NCBI GenBank assembly: GCA_003024785.1 | Contig: PUQB01000088.1 | Coordinates: 495,899-559,898, forward strand | Length of the DNA stretch: 64,000 nt | Direction: 5' to 3' | DNA from: Selaginella tamariscina | Lineage: Eukaryota > Streptophyta > Lycopodiopsida > Selaginellales > Selaginellaceae | Shown here: in pieces, positions 20,888-61,904 of the stretch | Position numbering within the stretch: position 1 is the stretch's first letter | How the letters are laid out: every line of letters begins with the position of its first letter | The notes under the pieces: generated by a model | Seen by the model: the letters and a program-made list of their open reading frames with translations, nothing else | The model's database searches: none | What the model was told of the DNA's origin: nothing | Position numbers and translations under genes: made by a program

Positions 20888-20892
20888 ACCAC
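20888..20892. repeat. Target-site duplication accac (left) of the solo LTR
   Basis: Matches accac at 21501-21505. Confidence 0.8.
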
Positions 20893-21499: not shown

Positions 21500-21500
21500 A

Positions 21501-21505
21501 ACCAC
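21501..21505. repeat. Target-site duplication accac (right) of the solo LTR
   Basis: Matches accac at 20888-20892. Confidence 0.8.
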
Positions 21506-24500: not shown

Positions 24501-24552
24501 CCTGCTAAACCAGGTCCCAAGACTCGTGGAACTCGTCTTTAGGAGGAGGTGC

Positions 24553-32482: not shown

Positions 32483-35400
32483 ATGGCTTGTATTCGTCTC
32501 ATTTCGTTCTCCTCATCCTTTCTTTTCACCGCTATAAGGTACTTTTTACTTTTATATTTTTTCTTGTTTTTTAACTAAATTTTTAAATGTTTAATAAGTA
32601 TTTATATGCGTTTTTCTTTCTCAGATGCTTTCGATCCCCTTGATCCTGGAGGGAACATCACTGTAAAATGGGATGTCATGAGCTGGACTTCAGATGGATA
32701 CCTGGTAAGTTTCTCGCAACGTGTGTGTGTGTGTGTGTGTGTGTATGAGAGAGAGAGAGACGTGCGTCTGTGTGTGGAGAGAGAGAGACGTGTGTCTGTG
32801 TGAGAAAGAGAGAGAGACGTCTGTGTGTGTGTGTGTGAGAGAGAGAAGAGAGATAATATTTGTGTGGAGAGTTGTTCAACATTTATATCACTATATAAAC
32901 TGAGTATATATAGTATGTTTTAGTCCTATATTAATGACACGGGTTGTATAATTCCATCAGGATTTGTTCTTTTCATGTAGGCTTTGATTACAATCATAAA
33001 TTATCAACGCTACAGGCACATAGAGCTCCCAGGATGGACTTTGCAGTGGACATGGCAAAATGAAGAAGTTATTTGGAGCATGGTTGGGGCACAGGTATGG
33101 TTTTTTTCATCTTCTTCATTTTTTAGTATTAGTCAACAATTATCTGTTGTTAAGTAACCATTATTTTCTAGGCAACAATGCAAGGTGACTGTTCAATGTT
33201 CCATGGAGCGATTCCTCATTCCTGTCTACGCAGTCCGACAATTGTTGATCTCCTTCCGGATGTTCCTCCCAGCATGCAAATAGTAAGTACTTCAATATCA
33301 CAGACACGACACACACACACACGATATATCAATTGATCTAGTAAATCGTCATTATACTATTTTGTAGTGTAAGGATATGTGTTACTGATTTCCACGAGTG
33401 TGTCTTCCCTATGAACAGGCAAACTGCTGCAAGCATGGCGTTTTAAGTTCGCCTCTACAAGATGATGAAAACTCTATTGCCAGCTTCCAACTTAGTGTCG
33501 GACAAGGTGGAAATGATACGACCCCTCCCAAAAACTTTAACATAGGAGCTTCTGGCCCTGGTTATGTATGTTCTCCTGCAAAAAGCGTTAATGCGAGCTT
33601 GTTCCTCTCTCCAGATGGCCGTCGAAACACCCAAGCTTTGAGTAAGTATTCTCTTACATATATACTATCTATGTGATTCATATACATGTGTACTTATACA
33701 TTTGTCTGTATGTCACGTATATATAGGCTAACACAATATATAGTAACAACGAAAACACAAATATATTTACATAAATCTTTTGATCTTTATTCTTTTATAT
33801 ATAGCACACGCACACGCGATAGTACGTACCGTATAATTAATTGTAAAAAGAGGTGTTGATTACGTTTTGTGCAGAGACTTGGAACGTGACTTGTGTTTAC
33901 TCTCAAGCAAGAGCTCAACGAGCACCTTCATGTTGTGTTTTTTTCAGCGTTTTATAACAAGACTATCATTCCGTGCCAGACTTGTTCTTGCCAGTGTTCC
34001 TATAACATAACACAACCAGTTCACAGTGCTCAACCCATGTGCTTAGAAATGTAAGATCTCTCTCTCTCTCTCTCTCTCTCAGACCAGTGTGTGTATACAT
34101 GATGCAAGTATGGTGGTCTGTGTTCCTATACAGACGCAATTGATATCAAATAGAATGTACGGTTGTATATATTTTAATTTGTTTCAGGACTTCAGCATAT
34201 ATTAAATCACCAGGTTATAGTACTGGCTTATCAAGGGGACCACCAGAACTCTACTGTTCTCAAGATATGTGTCCAGTGAAGATTCATTGGCATGTCAAGA
34301 CTAACTATTACAACTATTGGAGGTAAAAATTATCTGCCAAAATGAGTTTCATATATATATATTGTGTGTGTGTGTGTTTTATGTTTATGATATGTTGTGT
34401 ATTTGTATGTGATTATATGTAGGGCCAAGATTACCATTATAAATAGGAATGTGTAAAGAACCACACTCAATGGAACGTAGTTGTGCAGCATCCAAACTTC
34501 GATAATCTCACATCCGCCTTCAGCTTCAACTACATGGGATTATCATCATCTGGTCAAACAAGTAGCAGTTAGTATTAAATTAATCTGTAATTGTTGCAGT
34601 ACTGCTCTACCGGTGTGTTCTTTTCTGACTCATCTCCATCTCTCTCTCTCTCTCTATTGTGTGTGTTTGTGTTAATAGATCATAGTTTTTGTTAATTAAA
34701 ATGGTAAAGGCGCGTACGTGCTGTGTGCGTGTAATGGTTAATCATCCAAATGTAATCTAAAAATAGGATATTATCAATGTAATGATATGTAGGAAGCTAC
34801 TATACGGACACCCCCTCCCACTTAAGACATGTCATTTATTTATATTTAAAATTATTATCTAAATATTTGGACACCCCCCTCCCACTTAAGACATGTGATA
34901 TTTAAAAATTATTATCTAAATGTTTATCATTAAATGTATTATCTTATCAAATCTAAATATGTAAAATGTGTATTTTAAAATTTTCACAATTATGTGGTGT
35001 AATTTAAATAGGATAACTAAAATATATTATTGCACGCCTACGCAACGCACACACACACATGTGTGTGTGTGTGAATGTGAACAAGGATTGCATACATCTT
35101 ACTATTACTAATTCATCTTCTCTGTTTAATGTTAACAGATAATTCTGGAATGATGTGGGGGAAGAAGTATTACAATGAAATGCTGCTAACAGCAGGTCCA
35201 AATGGGAACGTGCAATCGGAGCTTCTGTTTGCTAAGGACTCGAAGTTTCACACTGGACAAAGGATGGGCTTTCCCACACAAGGTTTACTTCAATGGAGAA
35301 GAGTGTGTTCTTCCTCGGCCCGATGTTTATCCATATTTACCAGGTGCACAGTTTCATCTAAACACAAGGTTTATCATTTTAATCATTTTTAGCTTTGATT

Positions 35401-35540
35401 TTGTAGGCCCTTTAACTGTTCTTTTATGTATTATAACAAAACAAAGCTGTTTCCATAGTGTTAATCTTTTATCTTTTAGTGCTAATCTGTGTATAATGTA
35501 TAATAAACAATGCACAAACATATACAATGTTTGCCTCTAG
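32483..35540 (+). CDS. COBRA-like GPI-anchored protein, 9 exons with frame breaks
   Basis: COBRA-like proteins sit at the outer plasma membrane and guide cellulose deposition. Exons: 32483-32538 (signal peptide, MACIRLISFSSSFLFTAI), 32625-32704, 32981-33094, 33172-33282, 33419-33641, 33875-34051, 34188-34322, 34423-34567, 35139 to about 35540. The domain is clear: GNITVKWDVMSWTSDGY, then GWTLQWTWQNEEVIWSMVGA, GDCSMFHGAIPHSC, the CCV and CQTCSCQC cysteine clusters, and GNVQSELLFAKDSKF. A hydrophobic tail after residues LPGAQFHLNT suits a GPI signal. Frame conflicts: the exon 1/2 phase; one extra T in the T run at 33938-33944; one extra T at 34020-34022; one base short near 34445-34460; one extra G at 35255-35256. 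It is either a decaying gene or a sequence with consensus errors; exon 1 is the least certain. Confidence 0.75.
34796..34925. repeat. Direct tandem repeat of about 60 bp in COBRA-like intron 8
   Basis: The phrase ggacacccccctcccactta recurs (first copy with one C fewer), followed in both by 'agacatgt' and an 'attattatctaaat' end. Confidence 0.7.
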
Positions 35541-36170: not shown

Positions 36171-38397
36171 TAGAATATGCTTAGATACAAGCATATATTA
36201 TGTATGTGGATCCGCACTTACTAAGCGGATCCATTGATTTATATATATATATAAAACACGTATGTACACGTGAACACACACATACACATATTCTTAATGC
36301 GTATACCTGCCAAGTGTCTGCTCATCATAAACTTAAAAGTTGACCGGTCGACAGCCCGTACAAATATTAAGAGCATAACAACGTGTGTGTGTGTGTGTGT
36401 GTGTGTCTCCATCTGCACATATATACACATACATGTATATATGAAAATAATAAGTGCTTTGGGCATTTTGAACTTCCCTGGAGTATTCAAGAGTGTTATG
36501 ATAATTTTCTGTCGATGCGGTGTATATAAACATTGTGTATGCGTGTGTGTGTTGTGTGAAAATATAACCTTGTGTATATACAAACAGATACATATATGTA
36601 TGCACGTATGTATGCATTTTTGTATAAGACAATATACATACACACGGGGTACATATTTTATATGTATATGTTTGTGTATTTTTATAGCATATATATGCTA
36701 TATAATATTTTTATTAATTTGTTCATGAATATATACATATAAACATTCATGAACATACGTTATGCATAGATTTCATATGTAAGAGAATATATATTGGGAG
36801 GAAATGGCGCCCTTCTTCGTATCTCATTACTAAAAACTTAATAAAAATCTTCTTTGTAAGTTTTTTCTTTTCAAAATTAAAATATTCCTCTATTCATTAT
36901 TTTTAATATGAATAGAATAATAAAAGTTATTTAAAGTATTTATGTTTTATTAATTTATATAAAATAATAAATTACTTTGATGTAACCATCGTAACGTATA
37001 TAAAGCATACTTCAAAGTTTGAAAACGAGACATTATGTCATAATTTTTATTATGATTTTATGTTTTGGAGATTGATTATTTATACTTATTGAGGCCTATA
37101 TAATGTAATAAAAAATAGCCTCACTTAATATATTTAAGTCTTTAAGGATAATCTAACCAACTGATATTAAATACTTTAAGAAATTTTAAGTAAAACTTCA
37201 AAGGGATTTATGTCAAATGAACTGGATTGTTTTCTTTAAAAGTTAATTTTAAATGGAATTTTTTTTATTATGTAATATATATTATATTATATATAATATG
37301 TGATATTAGAAATATACTGAACTTAATCTCCTCCACTTATTGTGATATCCTCTTGATTTGTTACTTCTTCACAACGCAAATGGTGTTTGTAATTAATATG
37401 TAAATAATACAATACACATGCATATGCAAAAACATATACTGGATCTTTTTCTTTTTATTGCTATCCTTTTGATTCATTGGTGCTTTGTTATCTATGTAAG
37501 TATACACACTATTCACAAAGTTTAACGTTAATGTATATTATTAATTAATATTTTTATTATTAAAGATATTGTCATTAAAGATCAGTTATTGAACATATAT
37601 ATACACATATATGTGTAATTATATGTATAGACTTACATGCATATAAAACGTTTTTAAAATTGAGTGAAAATAAATCATGAAAAGTTGTATATATATGTGG
37701 ATATGTATCACATAATGTGCATGTTTACTCATATATATGTGTGTGTGTGTATGCTTTTAGATGGATATGTTCAAGTAAGATTATAAAACCAGTTTCATTA
37801 ATGTTATAGCCAATAATTATCATTTTATTAATCTTCCATCAAGCATGACTTGATCTGTAATGAATATGTGTACTTATATACATATTATACGTAGTATATA
37901 TATGTATTTGCATCTAATTATTATTATCACCTGCAAACGCATGTACGCAGATAAATTTACACATTGTTTACAGCTAAATTCAAATAGCTTTTAAGTCTAA
38001 TTTGTCACTGTCAAATAACTTTGAATGTCTTGTAATAAGTTTAATTGGTCTATAATAAAACATTATTTTACTTATAATTTTTTAATAAATAATTACTCAC
38101 AGAAATTTATTTGGACACGATGGTTACACATATATATTATATAACTCTATGGTATAGAACTACCTCTTTATATATACCGTAAGTAAGATATATACTTCCG
38201 TATACACCACACATTATGTAGTCTGCTTTCCTTATACTTAAAAAAGGGTTATATTTACTTAAAAGGGATACATTTACTTAAGCCCAAAGGGCAGATTATA
38301 TATTCGATCCAAGTCCGATTATTCAATCCAACTTCACTATAAAAACACTCTCCGAAAGAGAGTGAGAACCCTAAATGTCATTTTCCTCAAGCGCCAA
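36171..38397. other. Upstream region of deaminase-like gene copy 1
   Basis: AT-rich with TG/CA tracts. No gene supportable; an upstream region shared with copy 2 lies at 38120-38390. Confidence 0.5.
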
Positions 38398-41300
38398 AAT
38401 GTGCACTGAGCAAAGGCTAGAGGAGCTGCACAGTGAGATCACAAAGACAGGCGGAGGTGAACAGAGGCCAGAGAGAACTGAATCCGGACGTAGACGAGGA
38501 CGAGGAAGCATGGGATGCCCTTGCATATGTGCTTTGCAGGCATGCAGAAGGAAAATGTAAGTTCTTCTGTTCATTCCGATTTCTTCTCATCATATTGTTC
38601 AGTTTTTACATGTTCTTGAGCTTTCTCGTGTATTAAGAAACTCAGATTTGGAGCACAGCAAGCTAAATCTTTTGTTTTTTCTCATAAAAGAGCAGTTTTT
38701 ACAGCCCCAGAATCTATCCTTCCCTTCAGATCGTTCTTTTATAAAAGCCTTAGAGCCGTATTTCTCAATTGTTTTTGTCTATTTGTTGTGGGATCCTCTT
38801 ATATTCGGACTGTTCTGCAGTGCATGATGTGTTTGCAATTCTCAAGCTACACAAGTATGCTAAAATTCTTGTTGCCAGCAACAAGAACAAAGGCAACGAC
38901 AATAAAAATGTGAGAAGGTTTCTTCAAGACCTCCATGAACTGGGACAAAAGGCTAAGAACAAGTAGTTTATTATTTCATTTCAATATGTAAATATAAATA
39001 AACTCGCTATATACTTCAGACATTTATTTGTTATCAGTGTTTATTAGCTGGATCATTGATCAAATTTAACAGACAGAAAAACAACCGTACATTGTGAAGG
39101 CATTCAGAATAATAGCACGGAGAAGCTTCTTAAAAATTAAGGTATTTTACATATTCATTTTCCAGTGTGTGTGCACACGCGCGCGCGTGCAGATAGTTAC
39201 ATAGATCTATATATGTATATATGTAAGTTGTTTGAAATCAGAACAAGTCAACTAATGACATTATCCAAATACAGCCACACACACACACACACGCATGTGT
39301 TTGATCCTATATTTATAGACAGCTTATATAAAAACATAACTCATCTTTCTTATCTTTACATAAACATAGACTCTCAGTGTAGATTCACAGATCATACATA
39401 TGTATATATGGAACTTGTTGTATATTTATGACACGCGCGCACTCACACATACAACATAGACATTGCATTCGTATCTAATTTGCGTATATACTAAACATAA
39501 AGCTATTTTTGCATAATATACAGACACATATGTGCCCAAGTGTGTGTGTGTGTTCATGAAGAAATGAAAAGCATGTGTCTTATAAAAGCAGTATAAATGC
39601 ATTGTCAATATAATTACATATAATATACTGTTTATGTTTCTATACGAGCTGTTTATAAGTACACATACAGCAAAGCCTCTATCCCTAAACACACACATAT
39701 TTTGTTTGTATACGTGTGTGTGTGTGTAATAAGTCATCAATGTATTATAGTGTTACATTCTTTAAACGACAATAACTTGTTTTATACTGTGCTTTTCGTT
39801 TCTCCATACATATCGAGTATCTTTATGATATTTATGAACCCCCCCCCCCAACACACACACACACACACACACACATATAGCTGGCGCCACATATTTTTAT
39901 GTTATACAAGATTCGTCACTGTAGTATAGTGTTAGACTCTTCATTGTGCTTTTCAGTTCATAAACATCAAACAAGTTCCATATATATTTTATTTATCTAC
40001 AAATCTACATGTCTGTGTGTGTGCACGTGTGTATTTATGTTTCTATATTGGATATAGGATATGCATTCAGTAATGAGCCCATACACATACAACATAGAAA
40101 TATGCTTTGAGCATGTACATATCTAACAATATATATCTATACCCCTTTTCATATATATATATATATATATATATAATTCTAATCAGTTTATTTTTGTTTA
40201 TTTAGCATAATATAAGGGCGTTCGGCATTTTGGATCAAGTGCCTCAAAATCACCGAAAGTTGTACAAACTTGTTGCAAATATCGAACATGACACCATTGA
40301 AGGTTACAACGAACATCAACAAGAAAGCAGACGAGAAGTGCTTACATATCTCCGAGTTGCTAAGGTGTGTGCGTGTGTGTGCACGTGTGCCCACATGTGT
40401 GTACTCGTAAATATAATGCTAGATAAATCATGAACATATAATTAATATGCATTTACTTTTCTGAACCATTTAAAAATATTCAGTGATATATGCCGTAGTA
40501 AAAAAATGTTACGGATTAGTAATTAATTAGATTAATAATTAGTAAACTAATAATTAGATTAGTAATTAAACATTTCTGTATCATTTTTCGACTACGGATT
40601 TAATCACTGAAAATATTTAATTATTCACATATAAACATATATATCATCTTCTAACTTAATAATTTTCATAGTTAGTGATATTGAGACCAGATTTGCTTGA
40701 CGGAGAAATCATAGTCGTTCCACCAATCGAAAAGAAGTGTTCTACTATCGAATTGTATATGCACTGTGAGATTCTTCTTTTAAATTGGATTTTTTAAAAA
40801 GTATAGAGAGGATTCTTACATTTTCTTTGTACGTGGGAGTCAGGTACATATTTACGTATATACTAAATACACATACACGTGTGTGTGTAACATAATGGGG
40901 ATTGAAATATAGAGATGGCATTTTTGATGTATAAACAATATATATATTTTTATACGTTATAATATGATTTTATTTTTTTGATGATAGCAAATTGTGTTGT
41001 TGGCTTTGTCATCGAATGTTACGACAATTGAAGGAACTTGGTATGAATTAAATGGAGAGGTTGTCATAATCGTTATTATCCAAGCTTAGTACCGTTACCT
41101 CCTCCAGGATTCGACACGTTTATCGATCGAGTAACCGAGCAAGTTAAAGAATCCAGGGGATCCTCTCCTAACACAGTAGTGTGTGTGTGTGTATAAGCAT
41201 GCATGTGCATGTGTGTGTGTGCACGTAAGTGTGTTTGTGGGTATATACATTAAGTAAATATGTATATGCAGTCCCCTGTGAGATCGTCTCTGCCAGACGC

Positions 41301-41762
41301 ACAACCGCCGAAGAAAACTAATAGTACTCTTAAAAAGGTATCTCTCTCTCTCTCTTTTACACCTACACACATATCTAATGTATGTATTTTATATCTAGCT
41401 TCGGAAGCTCATCTCGATATGGAGTTTTATTTGGTGAATTTGCTAATGAAAATATGGTAAGATCTCTCTTTCGCAATGTGTTTCGTGTAGGGGGAGCAAG
41501 ATGTTACAGTGCAGCTTAATAAGAACAGCGAAGAAACAGTGCCACAAAGAACACTGCAGCTTAAAGGAAACAACAAAGGAAGGTAAGATCTCTCTTTCTC
41601 TCTCTCTCAATGTGTGTTCATGTAGGGGAAGCAAGAGCAAGTCAAAGGGAACAACAAAAGAAGCAAAACAAAAAAAATTAAGAAGAAAAAAGAGCAATCA
41701 GTACAAGCTTAGGAGGCCTTCTATTAGTTGTAGCAGCTTTGATTTTAGTTTTATTCAGATAA
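38398..41762 (+). pseudogene. Deaminase-like gene, tandem copy 1 (decayed)
   Basis: Ten exons equivalent to copy 2: about 38398-38570, 38821-38962, 39073-39141, 40206-40364, 40672-40843, 40988-41178, 41272-41337, 41399-41456, 41491-41582, 41626-41762. It retains the MHCEILLL motif in exon 5 and CCWLC in exon 6, and a C-terminal membrane segment (LGGLLLVVAALILVLFR). It is damaged: exon 1 has a one-base gain and lacks the end segment of copy 2; exon 3 is one base short; exon 5 hits stops (WIF then TAA) after the HxE motif; exon 6 lacks two bases after LGMN, giving TAA. Exon 4 is 30 bases shorter than in copy 2. Likely a pseudogene of a zinc deaminase-type protein. Confidence 0.6.
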
Positions 41763-42010
41763 TGTGCTTATGATTTTAGTTTTATTCAGACAAAGCTAAA
41801 AGATAAAATATACTAGAATCTTATTAGAATATTTATTAATATGTGCTAGTCTTTCAAAAGAATATTCCTTAAGTATATAGTAATGGAAGGTATAATATAT
41901 TGCATATATTACATCTTGAAATATCATAAGTTGAAAATATTAGTACATAATTATTATCCAATCAAAATGCATAAATATTATATTAATAAGAATATACATA
42001 ACTATATATA

Positions 42011-43250
42011 TCATATATATTCTGGTGCACACTCGATTACATGTTTAGTGCAATCCTAGGCTGCACGGTTATATATAGCCATGTGGACTCTAATTCCAAT
42101 CTTGTAACCTTGTATAAATATCATGCGTGGGGGAGTTCTAATCAAGCCATATTTCACTCTTTAACATTTTTATTGGTAAAGATTTCTTTAAAAATTTAAA
42201 AGATTTTGTGTTGTTGTTCTTCTTCCCCTTACTATTTTTTGTTTGTTTGTTTCAACACTGGCAAATGAAGAGAGGTGACTCTAGATATCAACACACTGTA
42301 GTTGAGCTTGGCGAATCAGATTTCTCTCTTACAAGAGATTCATCAGTAGAATGTTCTTTGATTTCGAATTTTCATGTTCATCCTAATTCTTCAAGGGAGG
42401 CTGGAGTGGACATGTACCATTGGTGAAACATTTTCAAGAATTTTCATGTTCGTCCTGAATTGTTCAAGAGGAAGGCTAGAGTGGATGTGTATAATTGATG
42501 AGAACACTTTTAAGGAATTGTTGACTATCATAGATGGTTAGAATCTTAACAATTGCAAAAGTTCTCAACATGTTTACATGGGCTTGATTTGCAATGGTAC
42601 AATGGTATTCCCATCATTGATTGACAAGACTATAACAATTTGTTTCATCATTTCAAATAAGCTTTTAAAAAGCTAGAGAATTTCATTGCAACTTTTTGCA
42701 AACTCCATAATTTAAAGCAACAGTAAAGAGAAATCATTTAATAATTCAAGATCAAGTTTCGGATCACGCAAATCTGAATATGACAAAATATGTGTAATTG
42801 GGTTTGTTGTGGCCTACTCTTTGTTTTGACTTGGTAAAAGGATTTGGTGCCTAAACCATGGAGGAAGTACTCAGATTGTTGTGCAACAATTTGAGAATTC
42901 ATTAAAAGCATCACAATATCTTTGTTTTGTTCTTATGATTACGCCCACTCTCTAATCTTATGTAATCTCTAATCATATTCTAATGGAAGTGAGTGCTGTC
43001 CAAATGAAAATCGAGTCCTCATATTAGAATAGAGGACAAGGCCAATTTGCTAGTCAACTAGGGATGGGAACATTTTGCAAAATCACATGTGAATCCATGT
43101 CAGGTAACCACCACCAAAACATCCATAATAGAAAGATGAATTTTAAGGTTACATGTGTAGACAGTTTTAAAAGTAATCTTCCGCCTTTTACACGTGTAGA
43201 CAGTTTTAAAAGTAATCTTCCGCCTTTTTAACTACCTGTCCTAGTGGAAA
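42011..43250. other. Spacer between the duplication units
   Basis: No recognised gene. An open stretch (42208-42426, +) shows no known domain. Two imperfect direct repeats are visible: about 74 bp at 42368-42515 (both starting ttttcatgttc) and about 40 bp at 43155-43240 (gtagacagttttaaaagtaa twice). Confidence 0.55.
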
Positions 43251-43292
43251 GAGGGCCTTAAATACAAACATATATTATGTATGTGGATCTGT

Positions 43293-43330
<38 letters not shown>

Positions 43331-46300
43331 ACACATATTATGTACACGTGTGCATAAATGTATCTGTGTATGTGTATATGAACACACACTTAATGTGTAT
43401 CATCATAAACTTAAAAGTTGACCGGTTAACAGCCCATACAAATATATAAGAGCACGTCTGTGTGTGTGTCTCCATCTACATATATATACACATACATGTA
43501 AATAATAAGTGCTTTGGGCATTTTGAACTTCCATGGTTTAAAAAGTGTTATGATAATTTTTTGTAGATCTGATGTATACAAACATTGGGTGTGAATGTGT
43601 GTTTTGTGTGAAAATATAACCTTGAGTATATACAAAATATATGTATATGGAAGTATGTAATTCGTATGTATGCATAACCTATGTTCGTGAATGTTTATAT
43701 ATATCTATCCATGAACAAATTAACAAAAATATGCATATATATAGCATATACAAATAAACAAAAATATACATATAAAATATGTACCCCGTGTGTCTAAAAA
43801 AATATGTATATTGTCTTATACAAAAATGCATACAATATATATTAGGAGAAATGGCATCCTTCCTTGTATCTCATTACAATTAAGTTTTAAAAATTTAATA
43901 AAAGTCTTCCTAGTAAGTTTTTCTTTTTTAAAATTAAAATATTCCTTTGTTCATTATTTATAATATGTATAGAATAATACAAACTATTTAAACTACTTTT
44001 TTTTATTAATTTATATAAAATAATAAGTACTTTTATATAACCATCTTACATATATAATTCTATATAAATATATCATTACATTTTTTATATTAATTTTTTT
44101 TGTTGCTTGTGGGAAACTTGTCCATGGTGTATGTGATATCTTGAATATGGCTTAGGCAACTAAGATGTTCTTTAACTGATGAATTGATATAAATATCGAT
44201 GTGAATATGTAAAGATAAATTAGGTACAAATTAATAATTACAAAGAATAATAATTACCTTGTTAAGTGTAATTTGACATAAACATTAAAGGTATTGTTCT
44301 AAGGTTTAGATGGTACATTTAATTTGATTGTCAATTTGTAAATGGTAATCTGAGGAGAACTTGCACTTAATATTGATGATCTTAAATAATCATTTTCAAA
44401 GCCATTTAACTGAAACAATTTAAATCAAAAATCTTCTTACTTGTGATAAACTTAGTGCATTGTAATTGAGCCATCTTCGATAAATTATTTACCATAATTA
44501 AAGATAAGTTTAATTCTTTAGAATTGAGAAGATTTATGATAAGTTCATAAAAATCGATTCTCATTGGAATCATAGTGGTTATAACAATCTATATAGGCGA
44601 TGCATATTGAATATGGCTGCCAGAAGGAGTGAGGGTGCACCCAGTATTTCATATTAACCAGTTAAAGAGAGCTTGGATCATCAACACATGTTACAAGTTG
44701 TACAAGTACTTATAGAATTAAGACTAGTAATATTTTGTAAGCTTTAAAATGTCTAACATGGTAAGAGTATAATACATTGACACAATAAAGACCTTCTGGT
44801 ATATATAACAATCTGTTGTAGAATAGCAAATCATTCTAAACTTTAAATTCTTTATAATCACAATTAGAACTTAAATAAATTTGAAGTTAAATAAAAAACA
44901 ATGTGGTTCAAAACATCATGGGCAAATGCATTAGTGAATAGCATTATGCAAATCAAACCACTTAAAAGTGATAGTTGTTGAAGTTACACTAGCCTTGATA
45001 AACATTGGACTTCAACATTATGGATATATTTGATCATAAAGAAACATGTGGTTGGTTAGATCACATGGTTAGAGAGCAAAGCATGAATGTTGAGATAAAG
45101 CATTTACTTTATCTTGTGGAAAGTTTGAACAATATATGATGACAAAGTTAAACCAAGCTAATAACTAAGCCTAAGGAATTGCTAACAACTTAATACCCAG
45201 GTTGTTTAGAAGTATATGATGTTCTTATGATTATTATAAACCATGGCTATGTGTGGAGAACCTTTAAGGAAATCTCTTTACTCCTCGAACGAGTCCATAA
45301 TAATCAAAAGTTCTTTATCATGTACCTTAGTTGATCTTCAACAAAAAATACTTGCAAAAGTGAAATGTCACAAGGTGAAGATGTTCACCTTTATTAGTTT
45401 GAAATTTAACATTAGCAAGTGCAAAGCTGATGCATCAGCTTTAATAATAAAGGTTAATAAATATATGGGCGAGCAATGATCAAGGTTAAAGTGAAAGCAT
45501 ACTTTCGAAATTTGAAATGAAACATATATTTCATAGTTTTTATTATAACTCTATTTTATACTTTGGAAGTTGATTGTTATTACTTATTAGAGTTTTATAT
45601 ATAATAACAAATAGCCCTGCTTAATGTATGTAGATCCTTAAGGGTAGTTTAACTGACTTTCACTAAATATTTTAAGAAATTTTAAGTGAAACTTAACTTC
45701 TAAAACTTTTTTAGTTCTAAATCATATTGAGGGCTAGGGTTGACCTAACCCTAATGAGGTTAAAATCCACATTGGGGTTGGCAACATTTGATGCAAACCC
45801 ACTATAGTTATATATATTAAGTAAGGTATATGTATACAAGTATCTTAGGATTCAAAAGAGAACCCACTATCCTCCCTACTGATGTAATCTCTAGTGTCAT
45901 CAAGACACACGCTGCCCTAACTTCGCAACCACAATGGTTAGTGTAGACACTTTAAGAATTATCAACCCTTATTGTTGGCAAGTTTGTGGCGGGTACGTCA
46001 ACTCATTTCATTTAATAATTCGTTATCAAGTTTAAGGAGTACATTTAATAAGACTAGTGGTTGAGGCTGCACATCATCCACATCAAATTAAAAATAACAC
46101 TCGCAACTAAGTTAATTACACATCATGATTCACAAGGTAAATATTGAAAAATCGAGTTTCTAACATGGGTTATCTTATTAAATCCGCAAGCTTTCAGTGA
46201 GGGTTTCTAGAGTTTGGCATCGACATGTGATGCCCTAAGAGACTGGATATTAACAATAAAGGTTACTAATTATATATAAGAATCTTGTTAAGTCCATGGT

Positions 46301-47324
46301 AATCCATAATTAACTGTAATGAGTTATTTTTTTTCTTAATGATGAAAATGAAGACACTTGTTAAAGACTTAAAATGTCATAAGAATTGTTATACATATTT
46401 TCCTCAATTATATATATTCGTCAAGCCTTTTAGTTCCTTTAGAAAGAGCTCATAGATTGAAACTCAAGAATGCTAGTGTCCTTCCATGAGATGGAACAAT
46501 CGTAAAATGAAGTTTATTAGGTTTAATCTTATCAAACACATTAACAAATTTGGTATATTTAACTTAAGAGTCAGAAAATAAGCTTGTTAAAATGAGTAAC
46601 GACCACAACAAAAATTAACAAAAGATCTTACTCACCTTTTGAATGAATTTCTATACGGAAATCTTGTGATATGTAAAGGCTTCAAAGTTGATACAATCTA
46701 ACTCATTTGCTAGATTAAAACATAGTTATGATCTGCAAATATATATTACGCATCAGTTACAGCTAAATATTTATTATATATGTACACATAAATACACTAC
46801 GTGAAATAAATTCAGATTAAGTAATATATTTAATCAGCTAAGTAAGCATTACACTAAACAGCTCTAAGTACGTATTTCAAATCTAATTTGTCACTGTCAA
46901 ATAACTTTGAAAGTCTTTTAATAACTTTAATTGGTCTATAATAAAAAATTATTTTACTTATAAATTTTTAAAAATTACCCATTTTGACACGATGGTTAGT
47001 GATCTTCACACTGAGCAACACATATATATTACATAACTCTATGGTATAGAACTACCTCTTTATATATACCGTAAGTAAGATATATACTTCTGTATACACC
47101 ACACACATATACGTAGTTAATAAGTTTACATTTTACACTGGTACGTCTGCTTTCCTATACTTAAAAAAGGGTTATATTTACTTAAAAGGGATACATTTAC
47201 TTAAGCCCAAAGGGCAGATTATATGTTCGATCCAAGTCCGATTATTCAATTCAACTTCACTTTGAAAATACTACCCGGCGATTATGAAAGAAAGTGCGAA
47301 CCCTAAATCTTCTCAAGCGCCAAC
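43251..47324. other. Upstream region of deaminase-like gene copy 2
   Basis: AT-rich with no intact gene. It holds the gypsy relic near 44.6 kb. An open stretch at 45243-45479 (+) has no recognisable motif. Confidence 0.5.
44628..44720 (+). pseudogene. Ty3/gypsy integrase C-terminal relic
   Basis: The plus strand reads LPEGVRVHPVFHINQLKRAW, the typical integrase C-terminal/linker motif (HPVFH..QLK). It sits in the extra 1.4 kb that unit 2 has relative to unit 1. No LTRs are recognisable, so it is an old, mostly eroded insertion. Confidence 0.6.
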
Positions 47325-50034
47325 ATGTCCCCTAAACAAAAGCTAAAGAAGCTGCACAGTGAGATCACAAAGAGAATGTGGCTCAACAGAGGCCAGAGAG
47401 AACTGAATCAGGATGTAGACAAGGACGAGGAAGCATGGGATGCCCTTGCATACGTGCTCTGCAGGGCTCCAGCCACCCGAGAAGATGCAGAAGAAAACTG
47501 TAAGTTCTTCTGTTCATCCCAAAACCCACATCATAAAAGTGCATGTTTTTGAGCTTTCTAGTGTATTAAGAAACTCAGATTTGGGGCACAGCAAGCTAAC
47601 TTTTTTTGTTTTGTTTTTGTTTTCTCATAAAAGAGCAGTTTTTACAGCCCCAGAATCTATCCTTTTCTTCAGATCGTTCTTTTATAAAAGCCATATTTCT
47701 CAATTGTTTTTGTGTATTTTTGTGGGATCCTCTTAAATTCGGACTGTTCTGCAGTGCATGATGTGTTTGCAATTCTCAAGCTACCCAAGTATGATAAAAT
47801 TCTTGTTGCCAGCAACAAGGACAAAGACAACGACAATGAAAATGTGAGACTGTTTCTTCATGAGCTCCAGGAACTGGGACAACGGGCCAAGAACATGTAG
47901 TTTATTATGTAATATAAATAAACTCGCTATATACTTCAGACATTTATTTGTTATTAGTGTTTATTAGCTGAATCATTGATCAAATTTTAACAGAGAGGAC
48001 AAACAACCGTACATTGTGAAGGCATTCAGAATAATAGCACAGAGAAGCTTATCCAAAATTGAGGTATTTTACATATTCATTTTCCAGTATGTGTGCACGC
48101 GTGTGTGCAGATAGTTACATAGATCTATATATGTATATATGTAAGTAGAAACAAGAGACACAAACACACACCATATATATGCATGTGTTTGATCCTATAT
48201 TTATAGATAAAAACATAACTCATCTTTCTTATCTTTACACTCTTCACAGATCCATGCATATGTATATATGGAACTTGTTGTATATTTATGACACGCGCGC
48301 GCACTCACACATACAACATAGTCATATGCTATGTTCATACTCACACGTTCATTCATATCAATTTGTGTATATACTAAAAACAAAGTTATTTTTGCATAAT
48401 ATACAGACACATATGTGCCAAGTGTGTACGTGTGTGTGTTCATGAAGAAAATGAGAAGCATGTGTCTTATAAAAGCAGTATAAATGCATTGCAATATAAT
48501 TACATATAATATACTGTTTATGTTTCTATACGAGCTGTTTATAAGTACACATACAGCAAAGCCTCTATGCCTAAACACACACATATTTTTACGTTGTATA
48601 CGTGTGTGTGTGTAATAAGTCATCAATGTATTATAGTGTTTATACGACAATAACATGTTTTATACTGTGCTTTTCGTTTCTCCATAAATATAAAGTATCT
48701 TTATGAACATATGTAAAATGTATGAACCTACAGACCCACACACACACACACACACACACACGTAGTATTTTTATGTTGTCACTGTAATATAGTGTTAGAC
48801 TCTTCATTGTGCTTTTCAGTTCATAAACATCAAACAAGTTCCATATATATTTTATTTATCTATAAATCTACATGTCTGTGTGTGCACGTGTGTATTTATG
48901 TTTCTATATTGGATATAGGATATGTATTCAGTAATGAGCCCCATACAACATAGAGATATGCTTTGATCATGTACATATCTAACAATACCCCTTTTCATAT
49001 ATATATATATATATAATTCTAATCAGTTTATTTTTGTTTATTTAGCATAATATAAGGGCGTGGTGGAGCTCCATCGATCAAGTGCCTCAAGTCGGCATTT
49101 TGGATCAAGTGCCTGAAGATCACCAAGAGTTGTACAACCTTGTCGCAGATATCGAACATGACACCTTTGAAGGTTACAGCGAACATCAACAAGAAAGCAG
49201 ACGGAAAGTGCTTACGTATCTCCGAGTTGCTAAGGTGTGTGCGTGTGTGTGCGCACGTGTGCCCACATGTGTGTACTCGTAAATATAATGCTAGATAAAT
49301 CATGAACATATAATTAATATGCGTTTAATAAATCTTGTTACCATTTAAAAATATTTAATTATATCATCTTCTAACTCGATAACTTTCATAGTTAGTGATA
49401 CTGAGACCACATTTGCTTGAGGGAGAAATCATAGTCGTTCCACCATTCAAAAAAGAGTGTAAAAAACTATATAGGCCATTTTCTACTATCGAATTGTATA
49501 TGCACTGTGAGATTCTTCTTTTAGACTGGATTTTTAAGAAATATTCAGAGGAGGAGATTCTTACATTTTCTTTGTACGTGGGAGTCAGGTACATATTTAC
49601 ATATATACTAAATACACATACACGTGTGTGTGTAACATAATAGGGATTGATGGCATTTTTTATGCATAAACAATATATATATATTATATACGTTATAATA
49701 TGATTTTATTTTTTGATGATAGCACATTGTGTTGTTGGCTTTGTCATCGAATGTTACAAGAATTGAAGGCACTTGGTATGAAGATTAAATGGAGAGGTTG
49801 TCATAATCGTTATTATCCAGGCTTGGTACCATTACCTCCTCGAGGAGACATTTTCAACACGTTTATCGATCGAGTAACCGAGGAAGTTAAAGCAAATATT
49901 GGAGGCTTGAACTGCCCAACCATGTCCAAAGAATCCAGGGGATCCTCTCCTAACACAGTAGTGTGTGTGTGTGCGCACATAAGCATGCATGTGCATGTGT
50001 GTGTGTGCACGTAAGTGTGTTTTTGGGTATGCAG

Positions 50035-50057
50035 TCCCTGTGAGATCGTCTCTGCCA
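50035..50057 (+). other. Left half of deaminase exon 7 at the insertion site
   Basis: It ends in tgcca (50053-50057), which is repeated at 54423-54427 after the element. Copy 1 shows the uninterrupted site ctctgccagacgc at about 41289. Confidence 0.85.
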
Positions 50058-50144
50058 TGTTACATGACATACCTCGCCACATATACATTTAGGGCTTTCC
50101 GTTTGTGTCCGTTAGCACGGTGCGCTTGGATCCTGATTGTCTCA
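50058..50144 (+). repeat. 5' LTR of the copia element
   Basis: 87 bp, starts TGTTACATGACATACC and ends ATTGTCTCA; no differences from the 3' LTR seen. Confidence 0.95.
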
Positions 50145-50160
50145 TGGTATCGGAGCTCGG
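50145..50160 (+). other. Primer binding site of the copia element (initiator tRNA-Met)
   Basis: tggtatcggagctcgg directly follows the LTR; it differs by one base from the usual plant initiator tRNA-Met complement TGGTATCAGAGC. Confidence 0.85.
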
Positions 50161-50168
50161 ATAGCGCC

Positions 50169-53100
50169 ATGGAAGGAAAGCCATCCATCCGCGAGTTTGA
50201 TGGAGAAGGATTTGAGGGATTCAAGATCCATCTTGAATCCTTTCTCTTATTTCATGGGTTGTTGGGGATTGTAGATGGAACAGAGCCGTCGCCAGCTCCA
50301 GGTTCTACTGCTGCTGAGGTACGTGACTGGAATCTCCGGGATTCCAAGGCTAGAGGAAGTATTGCAATGTGCCTGTCCTCGAATGTATTATTTGCTGCTC
50401 CATCCATTCCCAAATCCACTGCAGCAGCACTTTGGAAATGGTTGAGCGACACCTATGGCATCAAGAGTGAAATGGATGTCTTCAACATCCATTCACAGCT
50501 AGATTCCTTGAGGCTAGAGGAAAATGGTAGTATCCAGACTCACATTGCCAAGCTCCAGGGATTTTTCACACAGCTTGCGGCTGCTGGGGCGAAGCATTGT
50601 CTCACGGATGAGCAGCAGAGGCTGCGACTCTACAAGTCCTTGCCGGCTAGTTGGAAGAATGCAGTTGAGAGCTTGCTTCTCCAACCAGGGATGACTTGGG
50701 CAGATGCCGTGAGGAGTCTTCGCAATATTGAAGCCATGCGAAGTGAGAGGGCGGAAATGCCACATGCTATGTATGCTTCACAGGCTCTTGGTGATGCCAA
50801 AGTGGCAAAAACGTATGCAGCAGCAAATGCCCAGAAAGGGCAAAATTCTGGGGCAGTAGCAAATGCCCAGAAAGGGCAAAATTTCAGGGTAGCAGCAAAT
50901 GCCCAGAAAGGGCAAAATTCTAGGGCATTTGGGCGTGCCAAGGCCAGACTTGCTAAGAATCAGTGTGCTCGTTGCTTGGAGATGGGCCATTGGGCTCAAG
51001 ATTGCACTGCTCCAAAGCCTGTCAAACGACCAATTGCTATGACGGCGAAAGCTAATCTACTCGAGAGCAATGGGACTGCTACAACAAATGAGGTTGACGA
51101 GGAACTCTACAACGCAGAGGCAGTTGTAGCACCGAGTAGGTGGCTTCTAGACTCTGGTTGTACTAATCTTATGGGCAATAAGAAAAGTCTTTTTGAGTGT
51201 TACCAACCGAACATTGAAAAGCATGCTGTTCATTTAGGTGATAATACCACCATCCCTGTGGAAGGCATCGGGCAATTTCGGCTCTCACTTGATCATGGGC
51301 GGACCATGACATTTGATGGTGCCATGCACGTCTCCACCTTGCGACGTAATTTAATGTCCATCGCCAAGATATGCGATCAAAGTGCAGTGGTAGTCTTTGA
51401 TGCAAAGGGAGTCTCCTTGGTTGACTCTAGCGACTTTCACATGCTTGGTACACAGTTGCTTCGTGGGAAACGCATTGGGGACTTGTACGAGATTACTGCT
51501 GCCGACTCAGTTCAGGCCTTTCAAACTGTGGAGGCAGATTCTCGTGCAGAGCTCTGGCACAAGAGACTCGGTCATGTGAATTACCAATCTCTTCAACGAA
51601 TGAAATCACAAGGCATAGTTACTGGATTGGATTTCCGACGTATCCCATCTACGTTTTGTGAAGCTTGTGTTTTAGGCAAGCATCACCGCCGAAATTTCTC
51701 GCCGAGTAAGCATCGAGCGATTGGACTTTTGGACTTGGTCCATTCTGATCTTTGTGGTCCCATGGACGTGCCAAGCCATGATGGTGCGAAGTATTTCATC
51801 ACATTCATTGATGACTATAGCCGTCGGACATGCATTCACTTCTTGATGCGCAAGAGCGATGCAGTTGTTGCGTTTCAAACATATAAGGCCTATGTTGAAA
51901 ATCTCCTTGGCCGAAAGATAAAAGCTCTTCGAGTTGACGGTGGTGGTGAATACCTCAACAATGAGCTTCGGGGCATCTGTCGTGATGTAGGCATACGACT
52001 GCAAGCCACGGCTCGCTACACCCCCCAGCAAAATGGTGTTGCAGAAAGGAAGAATCGCACTCTTGTCAATGCTGCTCGTGCTTTGTTAGCTGATGGACAT
52101 CTTGACAAGACGTTTTGGCAAGAGGCCATAGCCACAGCAATGCATGTCCAAAATCGCCTTGCTACGGCTGCTTTGGATGGAAAAACCCCTGAGGCATTTT
52201 GGACAGGGTCTACTCCTGATGTGTCTCACTTTCGAGTCTTCGGTTGTGCGGCATACGCACATACCCCTGATCAACTTCGGAAAAAACTGGATCCCAAAAG
52301 TAAAAAATTCATCTTCATAGGATATGCACAAGATGACACCATCGGGAGAAAAGCTTACAAGTTGTGGGATCTTGCATCTCATAAGGCTCTTGTTAGCACG
52401 GATGTCATGTTCAACGAAGATGACTTTCCCATGCGCACAGAGGCTCTTCAAGATCCTTCTTTCATTGATGAGACTCAACTTGTTCCTTTGATACCACTTA
52501 TGGGAGATGGTCCACTCTTGCCTCCGCCTTTAGATCCTATTCATGAGTTACCACTAGAGATTCCACTGGGGAATCCTCCACTTCTAGACATGCCTGAACC
52601 AGTTGATGCTCAAATTGAGGATAGGCCTTCGACACCTCCACCACCTCGTCGACGTCGTGGCATGCCTGATCCGATGCCAATTCTTGATCAACCCCGGGAA
52701 CGTCGACCTTCATTGAAAGTCCGAGAAAATATTGAAGTAGATGCTGCGGAGCTCGATGATTTTTGTGGTCTTGTTGATGCTGGCATCCCCATGACCTATG
52801 ATGAGGCCGTCTCAGGGCCTGAGGCTCCATATTGGATGGAAGCCATTGCGGAAGAAGTTGCTTCCATTCGGGTTAACGGCACCTATGTTCAAGTGGATTC
52901 AGCACCACCGGGACGACGTGTTTTGGATCCAAAATGGATCTTTTCCAAAAAGTATGGAAAAGATGGTCAAGTGGTACGTTATAAGGCACGGTTAGTTGTT
53001 CGCGGATTTCGCCAAGTCCATGGCCTTGACTATGATGAAACATTCTCACCAGTTGTAAAAATGGCCAGCCTTGCACTTGCGGCTGCTCGCAAATGGCAAG

Positions 53101-54370
53101 TCCACCATATGGATGTCAAGACAGCCTTCTTGAATGGGGATTTGCAAGAGGATATCTACATGCATATACCTCTTGGGTTTGAGGATGATGTTGCCTCTAG
53201 TGGCACTATATGGCAATTGCGGAAAGCTTTGTATGGCTTAAAACAAAGCTCCCGTGTTTGGTACCAAAAATTTGATGCTACCTTACGTGCTCAAGGCTTT
53301 TCTCGCTGCCATGCTGATCCCAATGTGTATGTGAAAGGCCATGCCAAGAGCATGCTCATCGTGGCCCTCTATGTTGATGATTTGCTCATCATGGGTGATG
53401 ACACTGATGCCATTGCTGCTCTAAAAGTTTCTCTTAGCCAGCAATTCCAGATGAAGGACCTTGGCCAAGTTTCTTACTTTCTTGGCTTTGAGGTCACACA
53501 TGATCCCAAGTCTGGTAGCTACATGCTTAGCCAACAACGTAAGGTCGAAGTCTTGCTGGATCGGTTTGGTATGCGTGATTGCCACCCTGTCAAGACCCCA
53601 ATGGTTGTCGGTGCCATTGACCTCACAATTGAGCAACCCGGTGAGCCTCTACCTGCTGGGACTCCTTATCGGCATCTCATCGGTTGTCTCACATATTTGT
53701 CCCTAATGACTCGCCCCACATCGCATATGCGACTATTGCCTTAAGTCAGTATAACACGTCACCAACCACCATGCATTGGCAAGCTGCCAAGCGTATCGTC
53801 AGATACCTTCGGGGCACTATGGATTGTGGCATTGCTTATTCGGGAGGTGATGCATCGTTGACATGCTACACAGATGCTAGCTTTGCCAACAACAAAGGTC
53901 ATCGCTCAACTTCTGGCATTTGCCTTTCCTTCTCAGGAGGTGCCATTGCGTGGGCTTCTAAGCGACAATCTGTGGTGGCACTTTCTAGTGCAGAAGCTGA
54001 GTACATTGCACTCACTACTGGTAGCAGGGAAGTGGTTTGGGCTCGGGGGCTACTTGCTGAGCTGGGATGTCCACAAGCTGGCCCCACTCCTTCTTGGTGC
54101 GACAACTTGAGCAGCATTGCCATGTCCAAGAACCCCGTCCACCATGCTCGCTCGAAGCACATTGAAGTCCAATTCCACTACGTGCGTGAGCTAGTTGATG
54201 GTGGCACACTGGCCGTCCAACATCTTGGGACAAAGGACATGCCAGCTGACCTTCTCACCAAGCCATTGGGGCCACACCAGTTTCAACTCTTGCGCCACAG
54301 ATTTGGGTTGGTAAGTGGCTTCGGTTTGGGGGGAGTGTTACATGACATACCTCGCCACATATACATTTAG
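50169..54370 (+). CDS. Copia gag-pol polyprotein (one frame break in RT)
   Basis: The start at 50169 follows the primer site by a few bases; upstream in-frame ATGs lie outside the element. Domains by residue: UBN2-type Gag (about 1-250) with three 12-residue repeats (ANAQKGQN...) near 218-254; CCHC knuckle CARCLEMGHWAQDC near 265; protease LLDSGCTNLMG near 330; pre-integrase WHKRLGH near 465; integrase HSDLCGPM, RVDGGGEY and PQQNGVAERKNR near 525-620; RT MDVKTAFLNGDLQED near 981 and YVDDLLIMGDD near 1068; RNase H TDASFANNKGHRSTSG and ADLLTKPL. The frame is open to 53744 but RT continues in another frame from about 53717. One missing base in the cccc run at 53714-53717 explains this. With that exception the element looks complete, about 1400 residues, a normal length. 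Confidence 0.92.
54325..54335 (+). other. Polypurine tract of the copia element
   Basis: The bases gtttggggggag end directly at the right LTR, the expected place and composition for plus-strand priming. Confidence 0.75.
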
Positions 54371-54422
54371 GGCTTTCCGTTTGTGTCCGTTAGCACGGTG
54401 CGCTTGGATCCTGATTGTCTCA
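54336..54422 (+). repeat. 3' LTR of the copia element
   Basis: 87 bp, same sequence as 50058-50144; followed by the target duplication tgcca. Confidence 0.95.
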
Positions 54423-54922
54423 TGCCAGACGCACCACCGCCGAAGAAAACTAATAGTACTCTTAAAAAGGTCTCTCTCTCTCTCTCTTACACCTACACAC
54501 AATGTCACACATATCTAATCTATGTATTTTATATCTAGCTTTGGGAGCTCATCTGGACATGGAGTTTTATTTGGTGAATTTGCTAATGAATATGACTATC
54601 GCAAGGAAGATGGTAAGGTCTCTCTCTCAATGTGTTTCGTGTAGGGGGAGCAAGCAGAACAACGAAGAAACAGTGCCACAGAGAACACTGCAGCTTAATG
54701 GAAACAACAAAGGAAGGTAAGATCTCTCTTTCTCTCTCTCTCAATGTGTGTTCATGTAGGGGAAAACTCAAAGGGAACAACAAAAGAAGCAAAACAAAGA
54801 CTAGTACAAAATTAAGAAGAAAGAAAAGCAAGAGTGCATATAGTAATCAGTACAAGTTCTATTTTTCTTTAGGAGGCCTTCTATTGGTTGTAGCAGCTTT
54901 GATTTTAGTTTTATTCAGATAA

Positions 54923-55662: not shown

Positions 55663-56532
55663 ATGGTGAAGTTTCTCAAGGCGAACAAGGTCGTGGTGTT
55701 GCTGCAAGGGCGGTACGCAGGCCGCAAGGCAGTGATCGTGAAGAACTTCGATGAAGGCGGCCAGAACAACACTCGGCAGTATGGCCATGCATTGGTCGCC
55801 GGCATCGCTAAGTACCCCCGCAAGGTAATCGTTCCCCCATGAATCCCCGTATCCCGTCGTCCACAAAAATCGCATTTTTGTACATAGCGTTTTCGTACTT
55901 TAAAGATCCATGCTTTGCCAAACATAGATCCCAGAAATTATCCAACAAATTCAAGTGAATCCCGATAAATTCACTTTCCCAACCATGTCTCAATGTACCA
56001 TCTGCATATGAAATCCAAAATCCCATTTTGTTGTTTAAAGTTAGTATATAACTTGTGACAAAATTGATTGTTTCATAGTATGTATCCTAAGGTATAACTA
56101 TAGTATAACATATTTTGTTTTAACAGGTCATCAAGAAGGCTTCGCAGAAGAAGATCGCCAAAAGGTCGCGCTTGAAGCCATTTGTCAAGCTCATTAACTA
56201 CAACCACATCATGCCCACGAGGTGAGTTTTAAGTTTATATATAATATATTATCTAGACCACTATACACATTATGTCAGAATATAACGGTGTTTGCTTATG
56301 TAATGGGTTCAGGTACACGCTTGACGTTGATCTGAAGAATGTTGTTACCTCTGAAAAGCTTGAGAGCAAGGCCAAGAAAGTCGAGGCCCGCAAGGTGAGA
56401 TTAAGTTTTTCATGTTATAAGAGGTTTTATATACATACACACTCATCTATGTAACAGGAAGTGAAGCAGCTGTTTGAGGAGAGGTTCAAGACAGGCAAGA
56501 ACAGGTGGTTCTTTACAAAGCTGAGATTCTAA
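55663..56532 (+). CDS. RPL27: 60S ribosomal protein L27 (eL27)
   Basis: A structural protein of the cytosolic large ribosomal subunit. Exons 55663-55824, 56127-56221, 56313-56394 and 56458-56532 join to 414 nt (137 residues), with all junctions GT..AG and in phase. It starts [20 protein letters not shown] (KOW-like fold) and includes the conserved [15 protein letters not shown] segment and the invariant C-terminus [13 protein letters not shown]. It is one or two residues longer than usual because of a small insertion after residue 33 ([11 protein letters not shown] where most plants have a shorter loop). No frame problem is seen, in contrast to its neighbours. Confidence 0.97.
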
Positions 56533-58749: not shown

Positions 58750-58790
58750 AACCTTGGTACACCCTAACCTTTTATATGCATCTGTAATCC

Positions 58791-60648: not shown

Positions 60649-60821
60649 TAAAATACCAAAAAGGGATACCTTTGTTTTTATATACCTTTATGGATATAAA
60701 TTTGTTGTAATTCGATTTATACAATTATATTTAAGAAAATTGCTGCTGTAACACTAATGAAGTGAAATGGCTTAATTTTTTAATATATTATTTTTATTAT
60801 GTTTTATGTGAAATCTAAAGT

Positions 60822-60822
60822 A

Positions 60823-60890
<68 letters not shown>
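60822..60890. repeat. (CT)n(CA)n compound microsatellite
   Basis: About ten CT units followed by about 24 CA units. Confidence 0.95.
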
Positions 60891-60892
<2 letters not shown>

Positions 60893-61850
60893 TTATTCTG
60901 GAGGACTCGTATTATGACCCTAGTTTGCCCGGTCTAATATTGGTATAGTCAAATATAATGAGAAAACCTATACGTGCATTTATATGGAATGGTTTGCTAT
61001 ATAAGAGAATAGTCTATATACCATTCTAGTACATATATATATATATTTTATACATGTATTATATTTATATATGTTTTATTGTAAAAGTAAATGTGATTAG
61101 CAGACAATATACATCACTATCGTAAATTATTACAAAATATCATTAACTAAGTGTTTTAAGAAAATTAAATGAATTCATCAGTAATGAATGCACATAAAGC
61201 ATTGCCTAAGCAACTATGTTTTCATATTATTTCTAATAAGAAACATAATCGATAATTGGACGACATATTAAAAAATTAATTAAATAATATATTACAAACT
61301 GTTTTTGAGGTGGTGAATTGGGCATAATAACTATTATAACATATACTTTAACCAATAAATAATATATAATAACTAATACATAATTATAAAATATAATTAG
61401 TATATGTAGCATATCTATTACTATTTATATGTAATAGAATATAAACTGTTCTATGTATATTTTATAAAATACATTATTTTATAATAAAAGCAGACATTAT
61501 GAAGTTTAAAAGGATATGTAAATAATTACTTACTAAACCTTTATAATGTTTTGAATTTGTTTTCTATAATCAAAGATCTGCAATGCTTGTTTGTACAAGA
61601 ACACATTGTAATTTTGGTAATTTTTAATTTAAGATTTAATATATCATTAAAATGTTCATTTAGTATTTTTGTGGCTCACACTTGTGACCAAGATATTCAA
61701 TACCATGGTGTGCAACTGTGTTGGTGATGTTATAAATGCATGTTTATTTACTTGTTAGTTAAAATATTATATATTATTGTTATATTTTATTACTATACCT
61801 AGTTTTCAAATAGAAATACTCATCTCATAAACAAATAAATAAATAAATAA

Positions 61851-61867
<17 letters not shown>

Positions 61868-61899
<32 letters not shown>

Positions 61900-61904
61900 T
61901 GTAT
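61868..61904. repeat. (GTAT)n microsatellite
   Basis: About eight tandem tetranucleotides directly after a (TA)n run. Confidence 0.9.

What the first reader, a model, noticed from the sequence alone, without database searches (positions are those of the whole stretch)
36171..54922. Tandem pair of plant genes for a putative OTT_1508-type deaminase with a C-terminal membrane anchor
Neither copy matches a standard plant gene that I recognise. Exons 5 and 6 carry MHCEILLL and CCWLC, which together form the HxE/CxxC zinc site of the deaminase superfamily. The surrounding pattern (YVGVR before the Cys pair, WRGCHNRYYPG after it) suits the OTT_1508-like branch. A Lys-rich linker and one terminal hydrophobic helix (LGGLLLVVAALILVLFR) suggest tail anchoring to a membrane with the deaminase facing the cytosol. 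Such a combination in a land plant, tandemly duplicated, could be an undescribed nucleotide or nucleic-acid editing or defence protein. Exon structure and motifs are seen; family and topology are inferred.
Basis: partly seen in the sequence, partly recalled or inferred. Interest (0 to 1): 0.85.

Follow-up and report, generated by a model that had tools for sequence, protein, structure and literature searches.

The report
Decaying plant base-deaminase gene pair
A plant chromosome carries two neighbouring copies of a gene for a zinc deaminase of a kind known from fungal RNA editing and from bacteria living inside cells; one copy is broken, the other keeps its active-site part but has a jumping gene lodged behind it.

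Summary
Copy 2 (47325-49957), spliced over five exons, is open for 309 codons and matches Pfam PF14441 (OTT_1508-like deaminase) at E=6.4e-12, 45.7 bits, cut-off 27. HxE, CxxC and RGxH align with five relatives, one of them a named Protochlamydia. The splice gives YVGVS, not YVGVR.

Three things were missed or wrong. Copy 1 (38399-41175) is a pseudogene with three frame-breaking indels. Copy 2 is split by a Ty1/copia-like element with identical 87-bp LTRs (50058-54422), some 50 codons behind the Pfam match. The C-terminal membrane anchor is not in frame with the deaminase in any of 40 (copy 2) or 48 (copy 1) splice combinations tried.

Exon 1-5 indels are multiples of three in 5 of 8 cases, against 4 of 35 in introns 1-4 (p=0.006): frame was selected after duplication. 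dN/dS is 0.94, so present constraint is unproven.

Function (inferred): nucleic-acid base deamination, perhaps A-to-I on RNA as in fungal OLD enzymes. A 2026 paper says the system is absent from other eukaryotic lineages; this locus argues against that.

The parts
38399..41175 (+). Copy 1 of the deaminase gene, exon equivalents 38399-38556, 38821-38962, 40217-40364, 40672-40843, 40988-41175: a pseudogene
   Evidence: Same GT-AG borders as copy 2; 1-, 4- and 2-nt frame shifts in exons 1, 4 and 5; stop at the start of exon 2
40762..40770 (+). HxE codons of copy 1 (HCE)
   Evidence: Frame read
40992..41012 (+). LCCWLCH of copy 1; with the spliced AG|C codon and AAA it gives SKLCCWLC as in the five relatives
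   Evidence: the 20-residue piece alone scores PF14441 E=0.0014 (19.0 bits, below the cut-off of 27)
47325..47499 (+). Copy 2 exon 1 (ATG ... AAAACT|gtaagt)
47755..47896 (+). Copy 2 exon 2 (model A; model B ends at 47843)
   Evidence: No indel between the copies over 142 nt; both models are open
49057..49234 (+). Copy 2 exon 3 (model A; model B starts at 49046)
49392..49588 (+). Copy 2 exon 4 with HxE (HCE at 49503-49511)
   Evidence: The PF14441 match starts here
49723..49957 (+). Copy 2 exon 5 with CxxC (49733-49744) and WRGCH (49790-49804)
   Evidence: 49724-49954 alone scores PF14441 E=2.5e-4 (21.4 bits); spliced with exons 3-4 6.4e-12
50035..50057 (+). Proposed exon 6 of copy 2, 5' part; joined in phase 0 to exon 5 it reads SL-stop
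50058..54422 (+). Ty1/copia-like retrotransposon inserted in copy 2; flanked by TGCCA duplications at 50053-50057 and 54423-54427
   Evidence: LTRs 50058-50144 and 54336-54422 identical over 87 bp; TGGTATCGGAGC follows the first LTR; copy 1 carries the empty site; copia-type gag/pol frames recognised by eye, no family search run on them
54423..54922 (+). Rest of the proposed exon 6 and exons 7-9 of copy 2, ending in a hydrophobic stretch (54869-54919)
   Evidence: Not joined in frame to the deaminase by any of 40 models; frame not conserved between the copies

Best explanation
The locus is a nuclear plant gene for an OTT_1508-like zinc deaminase (Pfam PF14441) that was duplicated in tandem. 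SHOWN: family, order and spacing of the HxE, CxxC and RGxH motifs, an open five-exon reading of copy 2, decay of copy 1, and the copia-like insertion behind the core of copy 2. INFERRED: copy 2, or an intact relative elsewhere in the genome, makes a soluble protein in which His and the two Cys bind zinc and Glu shuttles the proton in hydrolytic deamination of a base in nucleic acid. By analogy with the fungal OLD enzymes, the only eukaryotic members with a reported activity that I saw in print, RNA adenosine is the likeliest target, in stress or antiviral regulation. The fast turnover here (duplication, loss of one copy, a transposon in the other) fits a conditionally useful or conflict-type gene better than a housekeeping one.
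For: PF14441 hit well above the cut-off. tblastn hit to an annotated nucleic acid/nucleotide deaminase of Protochlamydia naegleriophila, 37% identity, E=4e-5. 15 columns of the motif region invariant among five relatives and the plant, including H, E, both Cys and RGxH. Core scores against P0002-P0005 lie 9-10 s.d. above shuffles, 0 of 300 shuffles reaching any of them. Copy 1 keeps SKLCCWLC. Exon 1-5 indels are frame-preserving in 5 of 8 against 4 of 35 in introns 1-4. Fungal OLD enzymes: HxE...CxxC centre and A-to-I editing (commentary PMC12754623, whole text read; the original study was not seen).
Against: No transcript evidence. Exons 1-5 of the two copies are no more alike than introns 1-4 (720/795 against 1534/1656 identical) and dN/dS is 0.94, bootstrap 0.56-1.85, so present-day constraint is not shown. 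Exons 1-3 have no convincing similarity to the N-termini of the relatives. No relative in the large protein search with the plant query. Fold of the plant protein, base and substrate were not testable here.
Confidence: 0.6

Rival explanations
1. The enzyme is a cytosine deaminase acting on single-stranded DNA or RNA (AID/APOBEC-like), for example a mutator of transposons or viruses.
Confidence: 0.25
2. Both copies are dead: a relic of a formerly useful or horizontally acquired gene, with no product today.
For: Copy 1 has three frame breaks; copy 2 carries a copia-like element and, joined in phase 0, a stop at the start of exon 6; pairwise dN/dS near 1.
Against: Copy 2 is open over all five exons that include the core, and the element lies behind the core, so a product is still possible; the three frame-breaking indels of exons 1-5 interrupt copy 1, not copy 2.
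Confidence: 0.45
3. One reading: a tail-anchored deaminase facing the cytosol.
For: A 16-residue hydrophobic stretch plus Arg ends an open frame in copy 2 (54617-54922) and its 51 nt have one, silent, difference between the copies (alignment).
Against: Out of frame with the core in all of 40 and all of 48 models tried; indels of exons 7-9 are multiples of three in 1 of 6; with the proposed exon 6-7 joint copy 1 stops in exon 7. Other GT-AG sites were not tried.
Confidence: 0.07
4. The frame breaks in copy 1 are assembly errors and both copies are intact.
For: A neighbouring COBRA-like exon at about 35.2 kb also seems split over two frames (by eye).
Against: Three exons of copy 1 are hit (1-, 4- and 2-nt shifts), beside larger in-frame differences (18, 30, 21, 6 and 39 nt); the spliced eL27 gene about 15 kb away is intact.
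Confidence: 0.08
5. Chance resemblance to the deaminase motif.
For: The motif is short.
Against: E=6.4e-12 and 0 of 300 shuffles.
Confidence: 0.01

Closest known systems
Pfam PF14441, OTT_1508-like deaminase (relatives P0001-P0005; P0001 is Protochlamydia naegleriophila, the sources of the others are not named)
   Same: HxE, CxxC and RGxH motifs in the same order and similar spacing; the score of the plant core (45.7 bits) is close to the three relatives scanned (45.0, 41.6, 44.9)
   Different: N-terminal exons 1-3 not convincingly alignable with the N-termini of the relatives; the plant gene is split by introns, one of them between HxE and CxxC
Fungal OLD enzymes of the OLD-ZAO antiviral RNA-editing module (Neurospora crassa)
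   Same: [quoted passage not shown] duplicated gene (PMC12754623)
AID/APOBEC deaminases
   Same: Weak profile similarity of the relatives across the zinc-site region
   Different: For the plant sequence itself PF14441 is the only Pfam family listed (E up to 1, up to 0.01)

Membership tests
OTT_1508-like deaminase (PF14441) | Profile score above the curated cut-off | tested here: met
   45.7 bits (exons 3-5) and 44.6 bits (exons 1-5) against 27
OTT_1508-like deaminase (PF14441) | HxE and CxxC zinc/catalytic motifs in order | tested here: met
   H, E and both Cys invariant in the alignment of five relatives and the plant
OTT_1508-like deaminase (PF14441) | Conserved G[IV]SxLCCxxC and RGxH segments (as seen in the relatives aligned here) | tested here: met
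OTT_1508-like deaminase (PF14441) | Deaminase fold with one shared zinc site | tested here: inconclusive
OTT_1508-like deaminase (PF14441) | Deaminase activity | not testable with these tools
Fungal OLD (OLD-ZAO module) | Adjacent zinc-finger transcription factor gene | tested here: inconclusive
   No C2H2 pattern in the six unspliced frames of the window; a finger split by an intron would be missed
Fungal OLD (OLD-ZAO module) | A-to-I editing of a premature stop in the neighbour's mRNA | not testable with these tools
   -
AID/APOBEC deaminases | Profile score above a cut-off of an AID/APOBEC family for the plant protein | tested here: not met
   Only PF14441 is listed for the plant protein
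Tail-anchored membrane protein | C-terminal hydrophobic helix in frame with the cytosolic domain | tested here: not met
   0 of 40 (copy 2) and 0 of 48 (copy 1) simple splice combinations; other GT-AG sites not tried

The most novel reading that the evidence does not exclude
Some land plants possess, or until recently possessed, an OLD-like RNA (or DNA) base deaminase outside the tRNA-deaminase and PPR-DYW families: a nuclear editing or defence enzyme evolving fast by duplication and loss, shared otherwise with fungi and with bacteria that live inside amoebae.
Probability: 0.25. Interest if true: 0.8.

Novelty: new member of a known kind. Interest (0 to 1): 0.5.

Why it matters
Fungal members of this family are a recently described class of A-to-I mRNA editors used in antiviral defence (PMC12754623). 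[quoted passage not shown] A plant member with a complete motif set counts against that statement, as does a Leishmania gene annotated as OTT_1508-like (PMC12315365, passages seen). It gives plant researchers a concrete gene to look for in nuclear RNA editing or mutagenesis; the same 2026 paper names only tRNA deaminases for A-to-I in plants.

Tried and rejected

Relatives by protein search: plant exons 1-5, 1054 candidates, none at E<=0.001; core region, 15 candidates, none at E<=10; the Protochlamydia core gave 5, itself included, among 9 candidates. The method needs shared exact 5-residue words, so distant plant or fungal relatives can be missed. Viral contigs: none by three scans. Genome contigs: none with the plant query, one with the mixed alignment, a Legionella MAG. 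Plasmids with the Protochlamydia protein: itself and a weak place in Legionella adelaidensis (33%, E=9e-3, not looked at further). Phage records with the Protochlamydia protein: none at E<=0.1. PDB by sequence with the plant core: no deaminase, best E 0.38. NCBIfam: nothing for the three proteins given; PADLOC: nothing but a weak AbiEi match (E 0.034) to P0001.

Structure: model of P0002 usable (pLDDT 74.5, pTM 0.74); model of P0001 poor (pLDDT 50.5, not searched further). Foldseek against PDB: 0 matches at E<=0.001, no deaminase among the 50 of 74 rows shown.

Corrected on the way: the dN/dS of 0.73 used a wrong frame for exon 3 and is replaced by 0.94; the identity counts use exon 3 as 49059-49232. 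mis-framed some blocks and gave no dN/dS. One search set the element's end 2 bases too far (54424), which touches exon 6 only; that exon is left out of the indel counts. One search had two exon borders one base off and is replaced.

Literature: eight searches (OTT_1508; OTT_1508-like deaminase/plant; deaminase fold/Selaginella; OLD-ZAO; OTT_1508 with moss, fern, lycophyte terms; PF14441/IPR027796; Orientia/Wolbachia/Selaginella with deaminase terms; A-to-I/land plants) listed no title or abstract start that reports a plant member; the lists are capped. Seen of papers: PMC12754623 whole; PMC13327615 parts 1 and 3 of 3 and passages; passages only of PMC12315365, PMC11169179, PMC3482391 and PMC5640708. 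The original OLD-ZAO study was not seen. I recall, from no call, that the Pfam text or Iyer et al. 2011 lists Selaginella among the eukaryotes with this family; that paper is not held. If so, presence in plants is not wholly new.
Full report
SETTING. The window is plant DNA: the spliced eL27 gene beside the locus (55663-56532) is complete and aligns over its full length with cytosolic ribosomal chains, best 7qiw (that 7qiw and the next chains are plant ribosomes is recalled). Pectinesterase and 5'-nucleotidase exons lie in the same window. The species is not known to me.

THE GENE. Copy 2, spliced at 47499/47755, 47896/49057, 49234/49392 and 49588/49723, all GT-AG, is open for 309 codons without a stop. 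An alternative for the second junction (47843/49046) is also open (295 codons), and the data do not decide between them. Exons 3-5 (with the model-B start of exon 3) match Pfam PF14441 OTT_1508_deam at E=6.4e-12, 45.7 bits, cut-off 27; exons 1-5 give 44.6 bits. Exon 5 alone gives E=2.5e-4, below the cut-off, and exons 4-5 with R in place of the spliced S still give 38.8 bits, so the hit does not hang on my choice of junction.

STATE OF THE TWO COPIES. Between the copies, exons 1-5 hold 8 indels, 5 of them multiples of three; introns 1-4 hold 35, 4 of them multiples of three (Fisher one-sided p=0.0055; 5 of 6 against 4 of 20 if runs of 1-2 bases are left out, p=0.0097). GT-repeat slippage in the introns may add to the contrast. 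So exons 1-5 were coding and under selection for frame for some time after the duplication. The three frame-breaking indels interrupt copy 1; copy 2 stays open. Substitutions tell no such story: exons 720/795 identical, introns 1534/1656, dN/dS 0.94 with bootstrap 0.56-1.85 over 261 codons. Copy 1 is therefore a pseudogene; whether copy 2 is still constrained cannot be said without an outgroup.

THE INSERTION. A copia-like element lies at 50058-54422 with identical 87-bp LTRs, a 5-bp duplication TGCCA, and TGGTATCGGAGC behind the first LTR, close to the usual plant copia primer-binding site (recalled). Copy 1 shows the empty site. The element sits in the proposed exon 6, some 50 codons behind the end of the Pfam match in spliced terms (match to residue 264 of 309, then 23 nt of exon 6). 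Joined in phase 0, as copy 1 reads, copy 2 meets a stop at the start of exon 6, before the element, so the core could still be made.

THE TAIL. The hydrophobic stretch LGGLLLVVAALILVLFR can be read in both copies, but none of 40 and none of 48 combinations of the proposed sites, with exons kept or skipped, joins it in frame to the core. In the proposed exons 7-9, indels are multiples of three in 1 of 6, much as in introns. I do not accept the membrane anchor. The test did not try every possible GT-AG site.

HOW IT MAY WORK. PMC12754623 (a commentary, whole text read) describes fungal OLD proteins with an OTT_1508-like domain and an HxE...CxxC centre that edit A to I, favouring hairpin loops, mainly in the neighbouring zao mRNA during virus infection. 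PMC3482391 (passages seen) places deaminases of Orientia, Rickettsia and Wolbachia near the AID/APOBEC group, and a profile of the relatives found here points weakly, without significance, to APOBEC3H. So the chemistry, hydrolytic deamination of a base in nucleic acid at a zinc site, is the safest inference; adenosine in RNA is the best guess; cytosine is a live rival. No C2H2 zinc-finger pattern was seen in the window.

NOVELTY. Known family, unusual host. [quoted passage not shown] the present locus and a Leishmania annotation (PMC12315365, passages) speak against that. I recall, without a call, that the family's describers may have listed Selaginella.

Noticed in passing
50058-54422: Copia-like element with very short (87 bp), identical LTRs; its coding frame is split (49983-53744 and 53645-54370).
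   Followed up: partly
35081-35540: COBRA C-terminal-like exon (COB_C, E=0.007, below the cut-off) that seems split over two frames, just upstream of the deaminase copies.
   Followed up: partly
14694-25206: Two Ty3/gypsy-like elements (by eye) in opposite orientation, 96% identical over 2.5 kb.
   Followed up: no
57507-62453: Pectinesterase exons with further repeats of the region (83-89% identity), and a 137-bp unit repeated twice without a difference at 59224-59500.
   Followed up: no
L001:2914-3582 and L002:2221-3498: PF14441 proteins in a Protochlamydia plasmid and a Legionella MAG; the Legionella one scores just under the cut-off.
   Followed up: partly
63671-63997 (-): Open frame with a hydrophobic stretch before what looks like the start of a xyloglucan hydrolase (by eye, name recalled; no Pfam hit at E<=0.01).
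   Followed up: no
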